Of a stretch of 64,000 nucleotides of DNA, positions 29,441-34,946 are shown piece after piece. The position numbers and the translations under genes are program-made. Every line of letters begins with the position of its first letter. Positions within the stretch are counted from its first letter, which is position 1. This DNA comes from Rhizobium sp. ZPR4 (GTDB taxonomy: Bacteria; Pseudomonadota; Alphaproteobacteria; Rhizobiales; Rhizobiaceae). The notes beneath the pieces were generated by a model. The model saw only the letters and a list, made by a program, of their open reading frames with translations, had not been told where the DNA came from and searched no databases. The stretch is from the NCBI RefSeq assembly GCF_040215725.1, contig NZ_CP157968.1:1302001-1366000 (forward strand). The letters are read 5' to 3'.

Positions 29441-30274
29441 ATGACGAGCATCTACTCGATCTCATCGAGCAATTACTATCAATACCAGACCTCGCGCTCG
29501 ACAGCGTCGACGGCTGATGATTCCATCGCATCCCTGCTGTCTGACAGCTCCTCCGGCAATTCGTCGGGCAGCTCTTCCGGCACGAGCTCCTCTTCGTCTT
29601 CGGACGATCAGTCTCAGATCGCTTCGGCAGAACAGCTCGTCGCGCAGCTGATGAACATGATTCTCAATATGCAGGCCGGCACCGGCAGCGATAGCTCGAC
29701 ATCGGATTCCGACAGCAACTCCACCAGTTCGACGTCAAGCACTCAGCAGGCTTCCGCAACCGGTACCCAGGATAGCAGCCAAAGCGATATGATCAGCGCC
29801 ATGGACACCAATGGCGACGGCAATGTCAGCGAGGCGGAATTCGTGGCCGCGCGCCCGTCGGACGTCAGCGAAACTCAGGCGCAGCAATTGTTCCAGAGCT
29901 TCGACACCAGCAATACCGGCTCTCTCACCGAAGCGCAGCTTGCGAAAGCCATGCAGGCGGGCCAGCAGCAACCCCCACCACCGCCGGGTGGCCAGATGAG
30001 CGACGATGACCTCTCTGCCGCGTTTTCCTCCATGGATACGAACGGCGACGGCAGCGTCAGCGAATCCGAATTCGTGGCTGCCCGTCCTTCCGACGTAAGC
30101 GAAGATCAGGCAACGTCGCTGTTCAAGAGCCTCGACACGTCTGGTTCCGGGTCGTTGACGCAGACCCAGTTCGAACAGGCCATGAAGGCACAGCAATCGC
30201 AGATGCCGGATTTCGGAAGCTTCTACTCGAACAATGAACAGGATCAGACGACGAGCGATCTGCTGACGCTCTGA
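29441..30274 (+). CDS. Ser-rich EF-hand calcium-binding protein
   Basis: 277 aa from the ATG at 29441 (GGAGG just upstream). Residues 1-110 are low complexity, mostly Ser/Thr/Gly/Asp/Gln. Then come two EF-hand pairs: canonical loops D122-TNGDGNVSEAEF and D199-TNGDGSVSESEF, each followed by a degenerate partner (DTSNTGSLTEAQL from 155; DTSGSGSLTQTQF from 232). Both canonical loops continue VAARPSDVSE, so the pair is an internal duplication. A P-rich linker (QQQPPPPPGG) separates them. No signal peptide; secretion through another route is possible but unproven. Function unknown, probably calcium sensing or buffering. Confidence 0.85.
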   Translation: MTSIYSISSSNYYQYQTSRSTASTADDSIASLLSDSSSGNSSGSSSGTSSSSSSDDQSQIASAEQLVAQLMNMILNMQAGTGSDSSTSDSDSNSTSSTSSTQQASATGTQDSSQSDMISAMDTNGDGNVSEAEFVAARPSDVSETQAQQLFQSFDTSNTGSLTEAQLAKAMQAGQQQPPPPPGGQMSDDDLSAAFSSMDTNGDGSVSESEFVAARPSDVSEDQATSLFKSLDTSGSGSLTQTQFEQAMKAQQSQMPDFGSFYSNNEQDQTTSDLLTL

Positions 30275-30636
30275 TCGAGCTTGAGCTTTCGCATTTCACC
30301 ATGCGAAGTGCCGGCAAGCCCGGGTAGGGGAGGTTCAAACTCCCGCCTCCGGGTGAGCCGGCTCTTCTGTTTTTGCCTGATATTTTTAGCTGATAGATGG
30401 CCTTTGGGCTCGAAAAGAAAATTCGAAAACCCTCGACATGAAAGCGACGGAATTCGGCAAGTGCAGCGTTCAATCCCTGTGAGCCTGTGTTTGATGTCGA
30501 AGGATGATACGCTGACCGAGATGCTGCGATCTGAATGGCGCCGCTTGCCGGAGTTGGCGGCGAGGCGGGATCTGCCGGCCAAAAGGTCAAGGCCCGCATG
30601 TCATGCCGGTATCGCAGGAAACTGGAGCGGTAGCGA
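30275..30636. other. 362-bp intergenic region before the ECF sigma gene
   Basis: Holds a small hairpin TTCGCAT/ATGCGAA (about 30292-30307), the multi-segment hairpin at 30310-30374, and about 260 bp that should contain the sigma-factor promoter. I see no convincing GGAAC-N16/17-CGTT ECF promoter. No gene seen. Confidence 0.5.
30310..30374 (+). terminator. Multi-segment hairpin with U-tract after the EF-hand gene
   Basis: Three stacked complementary segments: GCCGGC (310-315) with GCCGGC (357-362), CCCGG (319-323) with CCGGG (349-353), and GGGAG (328-332) with CTCCC (340-344) round a 7-nt loop; then CTTCTGTTTTT. The T-run ends the stem on the plus strand only. Probably the terminator of the EF-hand gene, but more elaborate than usual. 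Confidence 0.6.
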
Positions 30637-31215
30637 TTGTCGATGAAGTGGGATCGCGTGCCCAAGAGTGGCGACCCGGATGAGGACCTGCTCGGTCGTA
30701 TCGCTGCGGGCGATGTTCCAGCGATGCGCATGATGATAACACGGCAGTTGCCGCGCATCGTTGCCGTGGCGACCCGCATGCTTGGCGATGCCGCCGAGGC
30801 CGAGGATGTGGCGCAGGAGACGTTCCTGCGCGTCTGGCGGAATGCCGGCGGCTGGCGCCAGGGCAATGCCCGCTTCAGTACCTGGGTGCATCGCGTGGCG
30901 ACCAACCTTTGTTATGATCGCCTGCGGCGTCGCAAAGACGTTCTTGCCGAGCATCCACCCGATATCGAGTATGAAGGGCCGGCGCCGGATGCGGGTTTGA
31001 TGAGCGAGGACGATCCGTCCAAGCGCGTGGAGCGGGCCATGCAGATGATCGCGCCCAGGCAGCGTGAGGCGATCATTCTGGTTTACTATCAGGCGCTGTC
31101 GAATGCCGAGGCAGCTGAGGTCATGGATGTCAGCGTCGACGCACTGGAAAGCCTGCTTGCGCGTGGAAGGCGCTCCTTGCAGGTGCTTTTGTTGAAGGAA
31201 CAGGGCGATGGTTGA
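30637..31215 (+). CDS. ECF-type RNA polymerase sigma factor
   Basis: 192 aa. Region 2: DLLGRIAAGDVPAMRMMITRQLPRIVAVATRMLGDAAEAEDVAQETFLRVWRNAGGWRQGNARFSTWVHRVATNLCYDRLRRRK. Region 4: AMQMIAPRQREAIILVYYQALSNAEAAEVMDVSVDALESLLARGRRSLQVLL. Regions 1.1 and 3 are absent, as in ECF sigmas. The 3' end overlaps the next gene by 8 bp, and the product downstream is a single-pass membrane protein, the usual sigma/anti-sigma layout. I chose the TTG at 30637 with GGAG 9 nt upstream; the ATG at 30643 (GGAG 15 nt away) is the alternative. Confidence 0.9.
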   Translation: MSMKWDRVPKSGDPDEDLLGRIAAGDVPAMRMMITRQLPRIVAVATRMLGDAAEAEDVAQETFLRVWRNAGGWRQGNARFSTWVHRVATNLCYDRLRRRKDVLAEHPPDIEYEGPAPDAGLMSEDDPSKRVERAMQMIAPRQREAIILVYYQALSNAEAAEVMDVSVDALESLLARGRRSLQVLLLKEQGDG

Positions 31216-31660
31216 GAATATCGCGGGTCCGATGAATGCCGAACGGTTTGAGGCGCTGACCGCGGCCTATGGCGGCGATATCGGCCGATGGCCGCAGGCG
31301 GAGCGCGCGGCCGCACGGGATTTTGCCAGGAGCCACGCCGCCACCGAAATGCTGGTACGCGCGGCCGATCTCGACGCATTGCTCGACACCTACGTCGTGA
31401 AGCCTCGCCACGCTGGCCTGGAAGAGCGAATCCTCGCAAAGCTCGTTCGCCGCCTGACGATACGAAACTGGTTCCGCTTCGGCTCTGCCGGCATCGGCCT
31501 CGTGGGGGTCGGCATAGCCGGCGCGCTTGCCGGCAGCATTGCCATCGCCATCTTGGCCCCGAGCTTGACGTCCGATACCTCAGTCGTCTCCGACGGAACC
31601 ACGACCATGTTCGGCGATATCGGGCCGGACGCGGGTATAGCGCAGCAGGACAGCCAATGA
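31208..31660 (+). CDS. Single-pass membrane protein, probable anti-sigma factor
   Basis: 150 aa. A cytoplasmic N-terminal ~90 residues (NAERFEALTAAYGGDIGRWPQAERAAARDFARSH) precede a membrane helix at about 93-116 (GSAGIGLVGVGIAGALAGSIAIAILAP) and a short periplasmic tail. The gene overlaps the sigma gene and its stop overlaps the next start (ATGA), so all three are translated as a unit. The layout is that of an ECF anti-sigma, but there is no zinc-binding HxxxCxxC motif, so it is not of the ZAS type. The role is inferred from position and topology. Confidence 0.65.
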   Translation: MVENIAGPMNAERFEALTAAYGGDIGRWPQAERAAARDFARSHAATEMLVRAADLDALLDTYVVKPRHAGLEERILAKLVRRLTIRNWFRFGSAGIGLVGVGIAGALAGSIAIAILAPSLTSDTSVVSDGTTTMFGDIGPDAGIAQQDSQ

Positions 31661-32106
31661 CGGATCGCAGCTTTCGAATAGTGGTCATTTCTCTTTTGGT
31701 GCTGAACACCTTCCTGATCGGGGCATTGGCCGGCGGCGGGCTGACCTGGATACGCAAGACGCAGGCGCGGGCCGGAATGATGCCGCTAGCCGGCGAGCAA
31801 TTGCCTTCGGCGCAGAAGAAGGCTTTGCGCGCGGCGCTCAATGAGGCACGCAAGGACGAACGTCAGATCATTCTCGAGGCACAGCAGGCCAAGGTCGACG
31901 CCGCCTCCATTCTTGGGCAGCCGACGCTGGACAAAGAGGCACTCTCGGCGGCGCTGGCAAGGGCGCGCGACGCCGATATCGCCTTGAGGGCGAAGCTGGA
32001 GCAGCGTGCGGTCGATTTCGCAGCAGGGCTCTCCTATGACGAGCGCCGGGCACTTGCCGGAAGCCTGGTCCGCCGTGTCGTCCCCAAGGCAGCCGCCACA
32101 AAATGA
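31657..32106 (+). CDS. Periplasmic metal-sensor-like protein (Metal_resist/CnrX type)
   Basis: 149 aa from an ATG overlapping the previous stop. An N-terminal membrane anchor (RIVVISLLVLNTFLIGALAGGGLTWI) is followed by an all-helical periplasmic domain: LPSAQKKALRAALNEARKDERQIILEAQQAKVDAASILGQPTLDKEALSAALARARDADIALRAKLEQRAVDFAAGLSYDERRALAGSLV. This resembles the four-helix hooks of the Metal_resist/CnrX/Spy-like families that sense periplasmic stress or metal next to an ECF sigma and anti-sigma (as in CnrYXH). Few His, Met or Cys are seen, so metal binding is doubtful. It may instead sense misfolding or another signal. Confidence 0.65.
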   Translation: MTDRSFRIVVISLLVLNTFLIGALAGGGLTWIRKTQARAGMMPLAGEQLPSAQKKALRAALNEARKDERQIILEAQQAKVDAASILGQPTLDKEALSAALARARDADIALRAKLEQRAVDFAAGLSYDERRALAGSLVRRVVPKAAATK

Positions 32107-32181
32107 TCATAGTTGCCGAGCGACGGATCGAAACCAGGCCTGCGTTAAAGGAGCATGTTTGAATCAGGAGTTGCCAAGGCC

Positions 32182-33723
32182 ATGGCTGAGCAGTCCAATG
32201 ATGTTTATGCCGCGCTCGCTCTTTCCCGCTTTGGGCTAGGGGCAGACCATAACGGCACCACGTCGATCGCAGCCGATCCGCGCGGTGCGCTGCTGGAAGA
32301 AATAACCGAGCGCTTCGTCCCGGTTCCGGTCGGGCCTCAGCTACAATCGACAGCCGATCTTCTCGTTTCTCTCTACGCATTCCAGGAACAGCGCAAGGAA
32401 GCCAGACAGCAGGCTTCGGCCGCTGTCGCCGCCGTGCCGCAGGACAAGCAGATGCAAGGCCCGCAACAGCCGCAGAAGCCGCCGGTACAGCCTTCCGGCG
32501 CCATGGCAGGGCAACCGAGCAGCCAGGCAATGGCCACTCAGCCGAACAACCAAGCCATGGCGGCTGTCATCGGCAAAGCAGTCGAGAAGCTGGAAAAGCC
32601 CGCAATGCCTTACCTTCCACAGCAAATCCTGCTGGCGGAAGTGGATGCCCGCTTCAACGGCACCATCCGGCAGCCATTGATCGGCTTTGGCGAGCGTCTT
32701 GCTATGTTCTGGGCAAATCATTTCGCGGTCGCCGTCTCGAAGAGCGAGGAAGTTCATATCGTTGCCGGCGCCTTCGAGCGCGAAGCGATCCGGCCGCACG
32801 TCTTTGGGCGTTTCGCCGATATGCTGCTTGCTGTCGAGACCCATCCGGCCATGCTCGGCTATCTCGACAACCAGCAATCGATCGGGCCGAACTCCAAGGC
32901 TAACGCCAACAAGAAGCGTGGTCTGAACGAGAATCTTGCCCGCGAGACGTTGGAGCTCCACACGCTCGGTGTCAACGGCGGCTACACGCAGGCCGACGTG
33001 ACGACGCTTGCCAAGATCATCACGGGCTGGACGGTGGCACGCGCCGAGGGCAAGCTTGGGACACCCGGCACCTTCGTCTTCAACGCCGGCGCCCACGAGC
33101 CCGGCGACCAGACGTTGCTCGGTCTCACCTATGCCGACAATGGTGTGGGGCAGGGGCGTGAAGCGCTGCGCGATCTCGCCCGCCATCCGGCGACGGCGCA
33201 GCATATCGCCACCAAGCTTGTCCGGCATTTCGTTGCCGACACGCCGCCGCCGGGACTCGTGCAGGCCGTCGCTGCGACCTTCAGCAAGACCGACGGTGAT
33301 CTTTCGGCCGTCTATCGGGCGCTCATCGGCTCCGAAGATGCATGGAACCCGACACTTTCGAAGGTGCGTTCACCGCTGGAATTCATGACCGCGCTTCTGC
33401 GGGCAAGCGGCGAGACGCCGAAGCCGAATGTCATTCTCGGCGCTTTGACCGCCATGGGTCAGCCCTTCTGGGCGCCGGCGGGTCCCAATGGCTTTGCCGA
33501 TACCGTCGATGTATGGGCCTCCAGCGAGAGCCTCAGCATGCGCATGGATGTCGCCAATATGATCGCCAATGCGGTGCCGCCCCAGATCGATCCGCGCCGC
33601 TTCGTTTCAGACAGCCTGGGGCCGCTTCTCTCGAAGGAAACGCTGCAGGCGGTATCGCGCGCGGAGACCCGCAATCAAGGCCTGACGATCGCTTATCTTT
33701 CCCCCGAATTTCAAAGGCGCTGA
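32182..33723 (+). CDS. DUF1800-family protein
   Basis: 513 aa from the ATG at 32182 (AGGAG 11 nt upstream); the ATG at 32155 has an AAGGAG too close to use. The family core is plain: ALALSRFGLGAD near the start, ERLAMFWANHFAV, NENLARETLELHTLGVNGGYTQADVTTLAKIITGWTVA, HEPGDQTLLG, HIATKLVRHFVAD. It has an inserted low-complexity Gln/Pro/Met/Ala stretch of about 60 residues (ASAAVAAVPQ...NNQAMAAV). No signal peptide is visible, though the partner protein downstream has one. DUF1800 and DUF1501 genes are nearly always adjacent and have no known biochemical activity. Confidence 0.85.
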   Translation: MAEQSNDVYAALALSRFGLGADHNGTTSIAADPRGALLEEITERFVPVPVGPQLQSTADLLVSLYAFQEQRKEARQQASAAVAAVPQDKQMQGPQQPQKPPVQPSGAMAGQPSSQAMATQPNNQAMAAVIGKAVEKLEKPAMPYLPQQILLAEVDARFNGTIRQPLIGFGERLAMFWANHFAVAVSKSEEVHIVAGAFEREAIRPHVFGRFADMLLAVETHPAMLGYLDNQQSIGPNSKANANKKRGLNENLARETLELHTLGVNGGYTQADVTTLAKIITGWTVARAEGKLGTPGTFVFNAGAHEPGDQTLLGLTYADNGVGQGREALRDLARHPATAQHIATKLVRHFVADTPPPGLVQAVAATFSKTDGDLSAVYRALIGSEDAWNPTLSKVRSPLEFMTALLRASGETPKPNVILGALTAMGQPFWAPAGPNGFADTVDVWASSESLSMRMDVANMIANAVPPQIDPRRFVSDSLGPLLSKETLQAVSRAETRNQGLTIAYLSPEFQRR

Positions 33724-33725
33724 CC

Positions 33726-34946
33726 ATGACCTGCGAACTCATGACCCCCACCCGTCGTGCCGTGCTTGGTGCTTCAGGCGCCTTGTTTGCCTGGGCTTTC
33801 ATCCCACGCTTTGCCCATGCCGCCGGCGGACGCGACCCGCGTTTCATCACGATCATCCTGCGTGGTGCGCTCGATGGCCTGACCGCTGTTCCGCCGGTCG
33901 GCGACCCCGATTATCAGGCGCTGCGGCAGTCGATCGCGATGACGACGAGCGGCCCGGAGGCGGCTCTTCCGCTCGACAGTTTCTTCGCGCTGCATCCGTC
34001 GATGCCGAATTTCAACCGGCTCTATCGAGCCGGGCAGGCAGCAGTCGTGCATGCCAGCGCGACACCCTATCGCGACCGGTCGCATTTCGACGGCCAGGAC
34101 GTGCTCGAATCGGGCTATGAAATGCCTGGTCGCGTTGAATCCGGCTGGCTGAACCGGATGCTGGAGGGCCTGCCGAAGGGCGACAAGGTTTCTCCTGGCG
34201 CATCGGAGATTCGTGGACTGTCCGTCGGTGCCAACGCACCGCTCGTCATTCGCGGCAAGGCGCCGGTGCTCGGCTGGTCGCCGTCCAATCTGCAGCCGGT
34301 CAGTGACGATCTGCCGCCGCGTCTGATGGATCTTTACAATCACACCGACCCGCTATTTGCAAAGATCCTCGCCGAAGGCATTTCGACCGGCAAGATCGCC
34401 GCTGGTCTTGATGTCAAGGCAAGAGGCGGCCCCGGCGACCCCACCGGCATGGAACAGATGGCGAGAGGTGCCGCCCGGCTGTTGGCGCAGGACGACGGCC
34501 CCCGCGTCGCGGCATTGGCCTTCGAAGGATGGGATACCCATGCCGGCGAGGTGGACCGGCTGAACAAGCTTCTTGTCGGGCTCGATAATTCCTTTGCGGC
34601 GTTCCAGCAGGAACTTGGCCCAGCCTGGAAGGATACCGCCATCTTCGTTGCGACCGAATTCGGCCGTACCGCACAGGTCAATGGCACGCAGGGCACCGAT
34701 CATGGCACTGGCACCGCCGCCTTCCTCGCAGGCGGCGCGATCAAGGGCGGTCGGGTGATTGCCGATTGGCCTGGTCTCAAGCAGGCGCAGCTGCGCGATG
34801 GCCGCGATCTTGCCGCCACCACGGATCTGCGCGCTGTCGTCAAGGGGATCGCGGTCGATCTGTTGGGGGCCTCGCCGGCTGTCTTGACGCGGGATGTCTT
34901 TCCCGGATCCGACCATGTCCTGCCGATGAAAGGGCTGATCGTCTGA
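33726..34946 (+). CDS. DUF1501-family protein with Tat-type signal
   Basis: 406 aa. N-terminus TPTRRAVLGASGALFAWAFIPRFAHAAGG has the twin-arginine, hydrophobic core and AxA cleavage site of a Tat substrate. The mature part shows the alkaline-phosphatase/sulfatase-like fold: FITIILRGALDGLTAVPPVGDPDY, SRHFDGQDVLESG-like (RSHFDGQDVLESGYE), FEGWDTHAGEV, FVATEFGRTAQVNGTQGTDHGTGTAAFLAGGAIKGG. The Asp/His residues in those motifs suggest a metal-dependent hydrolase. It follows the DUF1800 gene by 2 bp. Enzymatic substrate unknown. Confidence 0.85.
   Translation: MTCELMTPTRRAVLGASGALFAWAFIPRFAHAAGGRDPRFITIILRGALDGLTAVPPVGDPDYQALRQSIAMTTSGPEAALPLDSFFALHPSMPNFNRLYRAGQAAVVHASATPYRDRSHFDGQDVLESGYEMPGRVESGWLNRMLEGLPKGDKVSPGASEIRGLSVGANAPLVIRGKAPVLGWSPSNLQPVSDDLPPRLMDLYNHTDPLFAKILAEGISTGKIAAGLDVKARGGPGDPTGMEQMARGAARLLAQDDGPRVAALAFEGWDTHAGEVDRLNKLLVGLDNSFAAFQQELGPAWKDTAIFVATEFGRTAQVNGTQGTDHGTGTAAFLAGGAIKGGRVIADWPGLKQAQLRDGRDLAATTDLRAVVKGIAVDLLGASPAVLTRDVFPGSDHVLPMKGLIV

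What the first reader, a model, noticed from the sequence alone, without database searches (positions are those of the whole stretch)
30637..34946. ECF sigma, anti-sigma and periplasmic sensor upstream of a DUF1800-DUF1501 pair: candidate undescribed stress-responsive export module
Seen: five plus-strand genes. The first three are coupled by 8-bp and 4-bp overlaps; the last two lie 2 bp apart after a gap of about 75 bp. The sigma is ECF type, the second product has one membrane helix, and the third is an anchored periplasmic helical protein of the Metal_resist/CnrX look. Known: CnrYXH-type trios sense the periplasm, and DUF1800/DUF1501 proteins occur together with no known function. Inference: a periplasmic signal releases the sigma, which turns on the secreted DUF pair. 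The third protein lacks His/Met/Cys clusters, so the signal may not be a metal.
Basis: partly seen in the sequence, partly recalled or inferred. Interest (0 to 1): 0.72.

Follow-up and report, generated by a model that had tools for sequence, protein, structure and literature searches.

The report
SigV-type stress switch controlling DUF1800/DUF1501 genes
A soil bacterium carries a conserved membrane-linked gene switch that, judged by a shared promoter signature, turns on itself and a pair of uncharacterised genes, one for an exported enzyme-like protein, and related bacteria use the same signature in a switch reported to respond to calcium shortage and acid.

Summary
The five genes are there as described. 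These are its only two strict copies in the window (0.01 expected). The 15 trio+DUF loci found in the order carry both copies (29 of 30 sites strict). Of 80 named relatives, 76 have the strict motif before sigma and 67 within 60 bp after the third gene; a reversed-pattern control gives 0. Outside Rhizobium, Mesorhizobium and Agrobacterium this is 22 and 15 of 26. The motif fits the RACE-mapped, sigV-dependent cabp promoter of Caulobacter vibrioides, a circuit published in 2026 without an anti-sigma factor; the anti-sigma/Metal_resist pair is the obvious candidate. The own genome has three more sites, before genes for probably secreted proteins. The DUF1800 tree needs three changes of the trio label. 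The sensor has no conserved His or Cys, so metal sensing is unlikely. 'Export module' is not supported: DUF1501 looks like a Tat-exported alkaline-phosphatase-superfamily protein. Signal and chemistry remain inferred.

The parts
29441..30274 (+). EF-hand protein gene upstream of the sigma promoter (XopAW-like; 115 bits, below the model's cutoff of 120)
   Evidence: Pfam EF-hand_7 E 2e-27, NF041410; start codon read; an EF-hand gene was found next to sigma in 53 of 80 named loci. No motif found upstream of it in six loci, so its control by this sigma is not shown
30445..30473 (+). ECF-type promoter 1, CGACGGA-N15-CGTTCAA, before the sigma gene
   Evidence: present in 15 of 15 trio+DUF loci of the order and, strictly, in 76 of 80 named loci
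30637..31215 (+). ECF sigma factor (SigV-type by context and promoter)
   Evidence: NF004113 281 bits, Pfam r2/r4_2
31208..31660 (+). candidate anti-sigma factor: cytoplasmic RF..YG....RWP region, one membrane helix (by eye), short periplasmic tail with a T.F motif
   Evidence: alignment A1 of 15 orthologues; no known family; role inferred from position
31657..32106 (+). anchored Metal_resist-family (PF13801) protein, candidate sensor or co-inhibitor without conserved metal ligands
   Evidence: alignment A2
32121..32149 (+). ECF-type promoter 2, CGACGGA-N15-CGTTAAA, 15 bp after the third gene and before DUF1800
   Evidence: 67 of 80 named loci have it strictly within 60 bp of the third gene's stop
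32182..33723 (+). DUF1800 protein (open frame from 32155; start at 32182 preferred), mostly helical model, no signal peptide seen
   Evidence: PF08811 E 6e-117; model pLDDT 87.3
33726..34946 (+). DUF1501 protein, twin-arginine N terminus, alkaline-phosphatase-superfamily fold

Best explanation
This is a SigV-type ECF sigma switch with a two-part membrane sensor, plus one of its target operons. In rest the one-helix membrane protein holds the sigma at the membrane, and the Metal_resist-like protein, anchored with its body in the periplasm, sets the state of the anti-sigma's short periplasmic tail (inferred). An envelope signal, in Caulobacter reported as calcium limitation or acid, frees the sigma (inferred for this organism). 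The sigma then transcribes from CGACGGA-N15/16-CGTTNAA promoters: its own operon (positive feedback), the DUF1800-DUF1501 operon, and unlinked genes for a GCG_CRPN protein, a PsiF-repeat protein and an alpha/beta hydrolase, all three with N termini that look like signal sequences. DUF1501 is probably a Tat-exported alkaline-phosphatase-superfamily hydrolase or transferase acting on an envelope or extracellular substrate, and DUF1800 its partner (inferred).
For: Shown: two strict motif copies in the window, expected 0.01; both sites in 15 of 15 trio+DUF loci of the order, 29 of 30 strict; 76 of 80 named loci strict before sigma and 67 of 80 after gene 3, reversed pattern 0 and 0; outside Rhizobium, Mesorhizobium and Agrobacterium 22 of 26 and 15 of 26; in 47 of 48 named loci with DUF1800 the motif (<=1 mismatch) follows gene 3; only 1-5 strict sites per genome in the 15 trio genomes, reversed control 0-1; the further sites recur before the same genes in other same-genus genomes. 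DUF1800 tree: the trio label needs 3 changes, 3 forced by starred branches, against a shuffled mean of 21.9. Published (abstract, passages and section 19 seen): in C. vibrioides the cabp promoter placed by 5' RACE is GGAAA-13 nt-CGTTCA; its forward primer ends in CGACGGA, so it fits the motif; activity is low without sigV and high with excess sigV, and rises with EGTA and pH 4.
Against: No direct assay in this organism. The Caulobacter authors did not show DNA binding, give sigV a different promoter inside cabp, report that SigT excess also raises the sigV promoter, and report cabp and sigV as separate transcripts. I did not see the C. vibrioides genome itself. In a class-wide sample 41 of 66 genomes with an anti-sigma match lack the strict motif, and 16 of 174 without a match have it (counted by hand, genome size not controlled). 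54 of the 80 named loci are Rhizobium, Mesorhizobium or Agrobacterium (two titled only Rhizobiales bacterium, one only Bacterium) and overlap the 15 loci from which the motif was read; in the other 26 the second site is often missing (15 of 26). L228 has the trio and the DUF pair but neither site. No DUF1800 export signal was seen, so its partnership with an exported protein is unexplained. No EF-hand gene was found in 27 of 80 named loci.
Confidence: 0.74

Rival explanations
1. The CGACGGA/CGTT promoters are read mainly by the general stress sigma (EcfG/SigT), and the local sigma is only one more member of that regulon.
For: The Caulobacter authors report that SigT excess raises sigV promoter activity and liken the sigV and cabp -35 regions to SigT-type targets (PMC13171946).
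Against: In the order loci the motif tracks the trio: both sites in 15 of 15 trio loci; in 86 DUF1800 loci without the trio the loose pattern hits 30 times in 1.44 Mb, one of them just before DUF1800. Only 1-5 strict sites per trio genome, few for a general stress regulon (recalled). In the published work sigV deletion lowers both promoters.
Confidence: 0.12
2. A CnrYXH-type metal-sensing system: the Metal_resist protein binds a metal through periplasmic ligands and releases the sigma.
For: Similar layout and the same Pfam family, PF13801.
Against: No invariant His or Cys, and no invariant Met beyond the start, in 15 orthologues; no metal efflux gene behind the five strict sites of the own genome.
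Confidence: 0.07
3. The sigma trio and the DUF pair are unrelated neighbours whose adjacency is chance or shared descent.
For: The DUF pair mostly lives without the trio (86 of 101 order loci), and the trio often lives without DUF1800 (32 of 80 named loci).
Against: Same promoter in the gap of 15 of 15 and 47 of 48 joined loci; three label changes on the DUF1800 tree.
Confidence: 0.04
4. The DUF1800/DUF1501 pair is a protein export system, as the title of the finding suggests.
For: DUF1501 is probably itself exported by Tat (invariant RR).
Confidence: 0.03

Closest known systems
CaBP-SigV circuit of Caulobacter vibrioides (PMC13171946, 2026)
   Same: ECF sigma next to an EF-hand gene; the cabp promoter GGAAA-13 nt-CGTTCA fits the motif; positive feedback. 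A named Caulobacter locus has motif, EF-hand gene, sigma, anti-sigma candidate and Metal_resist gene in a row (L240).
   Different: In the parts I saw the paper names no anti-sigma factor or Metal_resist gene (it marks an unidentified membrane component) and no DUF1800/DUF1501 target; in the window the EF-hand gene lies upstream of the promoter and not behind it.
CnrYXH of Cupriavidus metallidurans (recalled)
   Same: Sigma, small membrane anti-sigma and anchored periplasmic sensor of the Metal_resist type.
   Different: No metal ligands conserved here; different gene order; predicted targets are secreted and envelope proteins, not an efflux pump.
DUF1800-DUF1501 gene pair (PMC5122149, passages seen)
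   Same: Same two families as neighbours; twin-arginine motif on DUF1501 noted there.
   Different: That paper links some pairs to bacterial chitin synthase genes; the passages seen mention no sigma factor.
RpoE8 - hypothetical - periplasmic heavy metal sensor operon of Azospirillum brasilense (PMC12826043, passages seen)
   Same: Same trio by annotation, raised when RpoE6 is overexpressed.
   Different: I did not compare its sequence or promoter.
S. meliloti ECF26 (RpoE1/RpoE4, sulfite) and ECF16 (RpoE7; like Caulobacter SigF) systems (PMC6180224, passages seen)
   Same: Rhizobial ECF sigma with a partner anti-sigma gene downstream (ECF26).
   Different: ECF26 promoter is GGAATA/GT; no third Metal_resist gene in the passages seen.

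Membership tests
SigV-type ECF switch (as in Caulobacter) | ECF sigma with promoters fitting CGACGGA-N15/16-CGTTNAA at its own locus | tested here: met
   published cabp promoter from section 19
SigV-type ECF switch (as in Caulobacter) | EF-hand gene adjacent to the sigma gene | tested here: met
   29441-30274; but upstream of, not behind, the promoter
SigV-type ECF switch (as in Caulobacter) | Orthology of the two sigma proteins themselves | tested here: inconclusive
   The sigma of a named Caulobacter locus (L240) finds the window sigma at 55% identity; the C. vibrioides protein was not available
SigV-type ECF switch (as in Caulobacter) | Induction by calcium limitation and acid, loss in a sigma deletion | not testable with these tools
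   needs reporter assays
CnrYXH metal-sensing ECF system | Anchored periplasmic Metal_resist-family protein in the sigma operon | tested here: met
   PF13801 E 1e-20; 4-bp overlap; topology by eye
CnrYXH metal-sensing ECF system | Conserved His/Met metal ligands in the sensor | tested here: not met
   no invariant His or Cys, only M1, in 15 orthologues
CnrYXH metal-sensing ECF system | Target genes for metal efflux | tested here: inconclusive
   five strict sites in the own genome, none before an efflux gene; weaker sites were not searched
Alkaline phosphatase superfamily (DUF1501) | Superfamily fold | tested here: met
Alkaline phosphatase superfamily (DUF1501) | Metal ligands and nucleophile in place | tested here: inconclusive
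   D50, S119, H120, D270, H272, D325, H326 invariant in 33 of 33, but not superposed, and residues 115-119 and 316-328 have pLDDT under 50
Published ECF group (numbered classification) | Match to a group model | not testable with these tools
   group models are not at hand and the classification paper (10.1093/nar/gkaa1229) is not held

The most novel reading that the evidence does not exclude
A previously unrecognised proteobacterial envelope regulon, defined by one promoter word (CGACGGA-N15/16-CGTTNAA) and one sensor pair (RWP-type anti-sigma plus a ligand-free Metal_resist protein), reads periplasmic calcium or acid state, often through an adjacent EF-hand protein. It drives small secreted proteins and, in three separate lineages, a DUF1800/DUF1501 pair in which a Tat-exported alkaline-phosphatase-superfamily enzyme with a helical partner modifies an extracellular polymer.
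Probability: 0.35. Interest if true: 0.78.

Novelty: new variant of a known kind. Interest (0 to 1): 0.62.

Why it matters
It gives a concrete candidate for the membrane component that the Caulobacter CaBP-SigV authors mark with a question mark, a promoter word by which the regulon can be listed in many genomes, and, as far as my searches of an open-licence library show, the first regulatory handle on DUF1800/DUF1501, a widespread gene pair of unknown function.

Full report
Observation. Families: ECF sigma (NF004113, 281 bits, cutoff 208), an unnamed one-helix membrane protein (no hit), Metal_resist PF13801, DUF1800 PF08811 and DUF1501 PF07394. An EF-hand gene lies upstream (29441-30274). The closest named relative at the anti-sigma is a Rhizobium rhizogenes genome (99%), so the window is probably from the R. 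rhizogenes/tropici group (inferred).

Neighbourhoods. DUF1800 occurs in 92 of 297 genomes of the order, with 111 match rows (rows counted by hand). I examined 94 of those rows (93 fetched plus the window; 17 not fetched) and 7 same-genus loci found through the anti-sigma search: 101 loci. DUF1501 lies directly downstream of DUF1800 in 98 of 101; the exceptions are L086, L099 and L110. The sigma/anti-sigma/Metal_resist trio stands upstream in 15 of 101: 8 of the same genus including the window, 4 of another genus of the family, and 3 of two other families. Seven of those 15 were picked because they have the anti-sigma gene; among the 94 DUF1800 rows the trio count is 8. In the genus the trio is patchy: 8 of 37 same-genus genomes, the own one included, had a strong anti-sigma match.

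Promoter. In the 15 trio loci the same bipartite word occurs upstream of sigma and again between the third gene and DUF1800: 30 sites, 29 of them strict CGACGGA-N15/16-CGTTNAA and one with a single mismatch; the spacer is 15 in 28 and 16 in 2. Some of these loci have a few further hits to the looser pattern elsewhere. In the window the two are the only strict sites, with 0.01 expected from shuffles. In the 86 loci without the trio the looser pattern hits 30 times in 1.44 Mb; one of these (L071) is just before DUF1800. Genome-wide, the 15 trio genomes hold 1-5 strict sites each, against 0-1 for the reversed pattern; G308, searched because of L071, has none.

Named relatives. A profile of the 15 anti-sigma candidates found 292 relatives, of which the best 80 were kept: Rhizobium, Agrobacterium, Mesorhizobium, Alsobacter, sphingomonads, Caulobacter and Phenylobacterium, Burkholderia, Pseudomonas and some metagenome bins. 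All 80 have the trio. The strict motif lies upstream of sigma in 76 of 80, and in two more (L243, L247) further up, before an EF-hand gene; of the other two, L250 has almost no DNA upstream and L228 has no site. Within 60 bp of the third gene's stop the strict motif is in 67 of 80, 69 with one mismatch; the reversed pattern gives 0 and 0. DUF1800 is present in 48 of 80, and 47 of these have the motif (<=1 mismatch) after the third gene. Split by taxon: 54 loci of Rhizobium, Mesorhizobium, Agrobacterium or kin, 54 and 52 strict, 43 with DUF1800; 26 others, 22 and 15 strict, 5 with DUF1800. The first group overlaps the loci from which the motif was read; the second is the more independent part.

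Class-wide. In 240 genomes drawn from the class, 66 have an anti-sigma match, and 25 of these hold at least one strict motif, against 16 of the other 174 (counted by hand, genome size not controlled). So the anti-sigma profile reaches beyond the group that uses this exact promoter, or the promoter drifts.

Other targets. In the window's genome the three remaining strict sites precede genes for an 84-residue GCG_CRPN protein (NF047412), a PsiF-repeat protein (PF07769) and an alpha/beta hydrolase (PF12697), all with N termini that look like signal sequences by eye. In the shown part the GCG_CRPN gene follows the motif in 7 of 8 same-genus trio genomes, the PsiF gene in 5 and the hydrolase in 4. 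In Mesorhizobium a GCG_CRPN-like gene sits between promoter 2 and DUF1800; by a simple pattern this holds for 19 of the 80 named loci, and 11 more have such a gene there without DUF1800 nearby. In two Pseudomonas loci read in detail, small WxxGxW-type exported proteins follow the motif (the family name is recalled). By pattern, an EF-hand gene lies between motif and sigma in 37 of 80 named loci and just before the motif in 16; none was found in 27.

History. On a tree of 110 DUF1800 proteins (24 with the trio; quick method) the trio label needs 3 changes, all 3 forced by well-supported branches, against a mean of 21.9 for shuffled labels. The three groups are Rhizobium/Agrobacterium/Alsobacter plus one other family; Mesorhizobium; and family f11 with sphingomonads and Burkholderia. 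Repeated joining is the simplest reading; gain plus losses is not excluded.

Link to published work. PMC13171946 (abstract, passages and section 19 seen) describes in C. vibrioides a periplasmic EF-hand protein, CaBP, beside an ECF gene named sigV. Its cabp promoter, placed by 5' RACE, is GGAAA-13 nt-CGTTCA, and the cabp forward primer ends in CGACGGA. Read together these give CGACGGAAA-N13-CGTTCA, which is the motif found here (my inference; I have not seen the C. vibrioides sequence). Promoter activity is low without sigV, high with excess sigV, and rises with EGTA and acid. The authors leave the membrane link open. Against a simple transfer: the paper's predicted sigV promoter inside cabp is a different sequence, it reports separate transcripts, and it also implicates SigT.

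Verdict.

Noticed in passing
29441-30274: EF-hand protein resembling the XopAW family (115 bits, cutoff 120), found upstream of sigma in 16 named Rhizobium-type loci, without the motif before it in the six loci checked.
   Followed up: partly
L071:9600 (minus strand): A motif-like site (CGACGGA-N16-CGTTAAG) directly before DUF1800 in a locus with no trio; the strict pattern finds no site in that genome.
   Followed up: no
L241:8850 (minus) and 8947 (plus): Many of the Pseudomonas loci carry a second, divergent strict motif about 100 bp from the sigma-side one; small WxxGxW-type exported proteins follow motifs in the two loci read.
   Followed up: partly
L270:12506 and 15406 (minus): Sphingomonas locus with strict motifs before a GCG_CRPN-like gene and before a small exported protein followed by a sulfatase-like gene (names by eye).
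   Followed up: no
32155-32182: DUF1800 start: the first ATG is too close to the promoter's -10 box; the next in-frame ATG (32182), behind a GGAG, fits better and agrees with a 512-residue homologue.
   Followed up: partly
G000:C2:826373 (L176): Behind the GCG_CRPN gene lie a small DCC-like protein and a dehydrogenase-like protein in several genomes; names are my guess, and whether they share the transcript is unknown.
   Followed up: no
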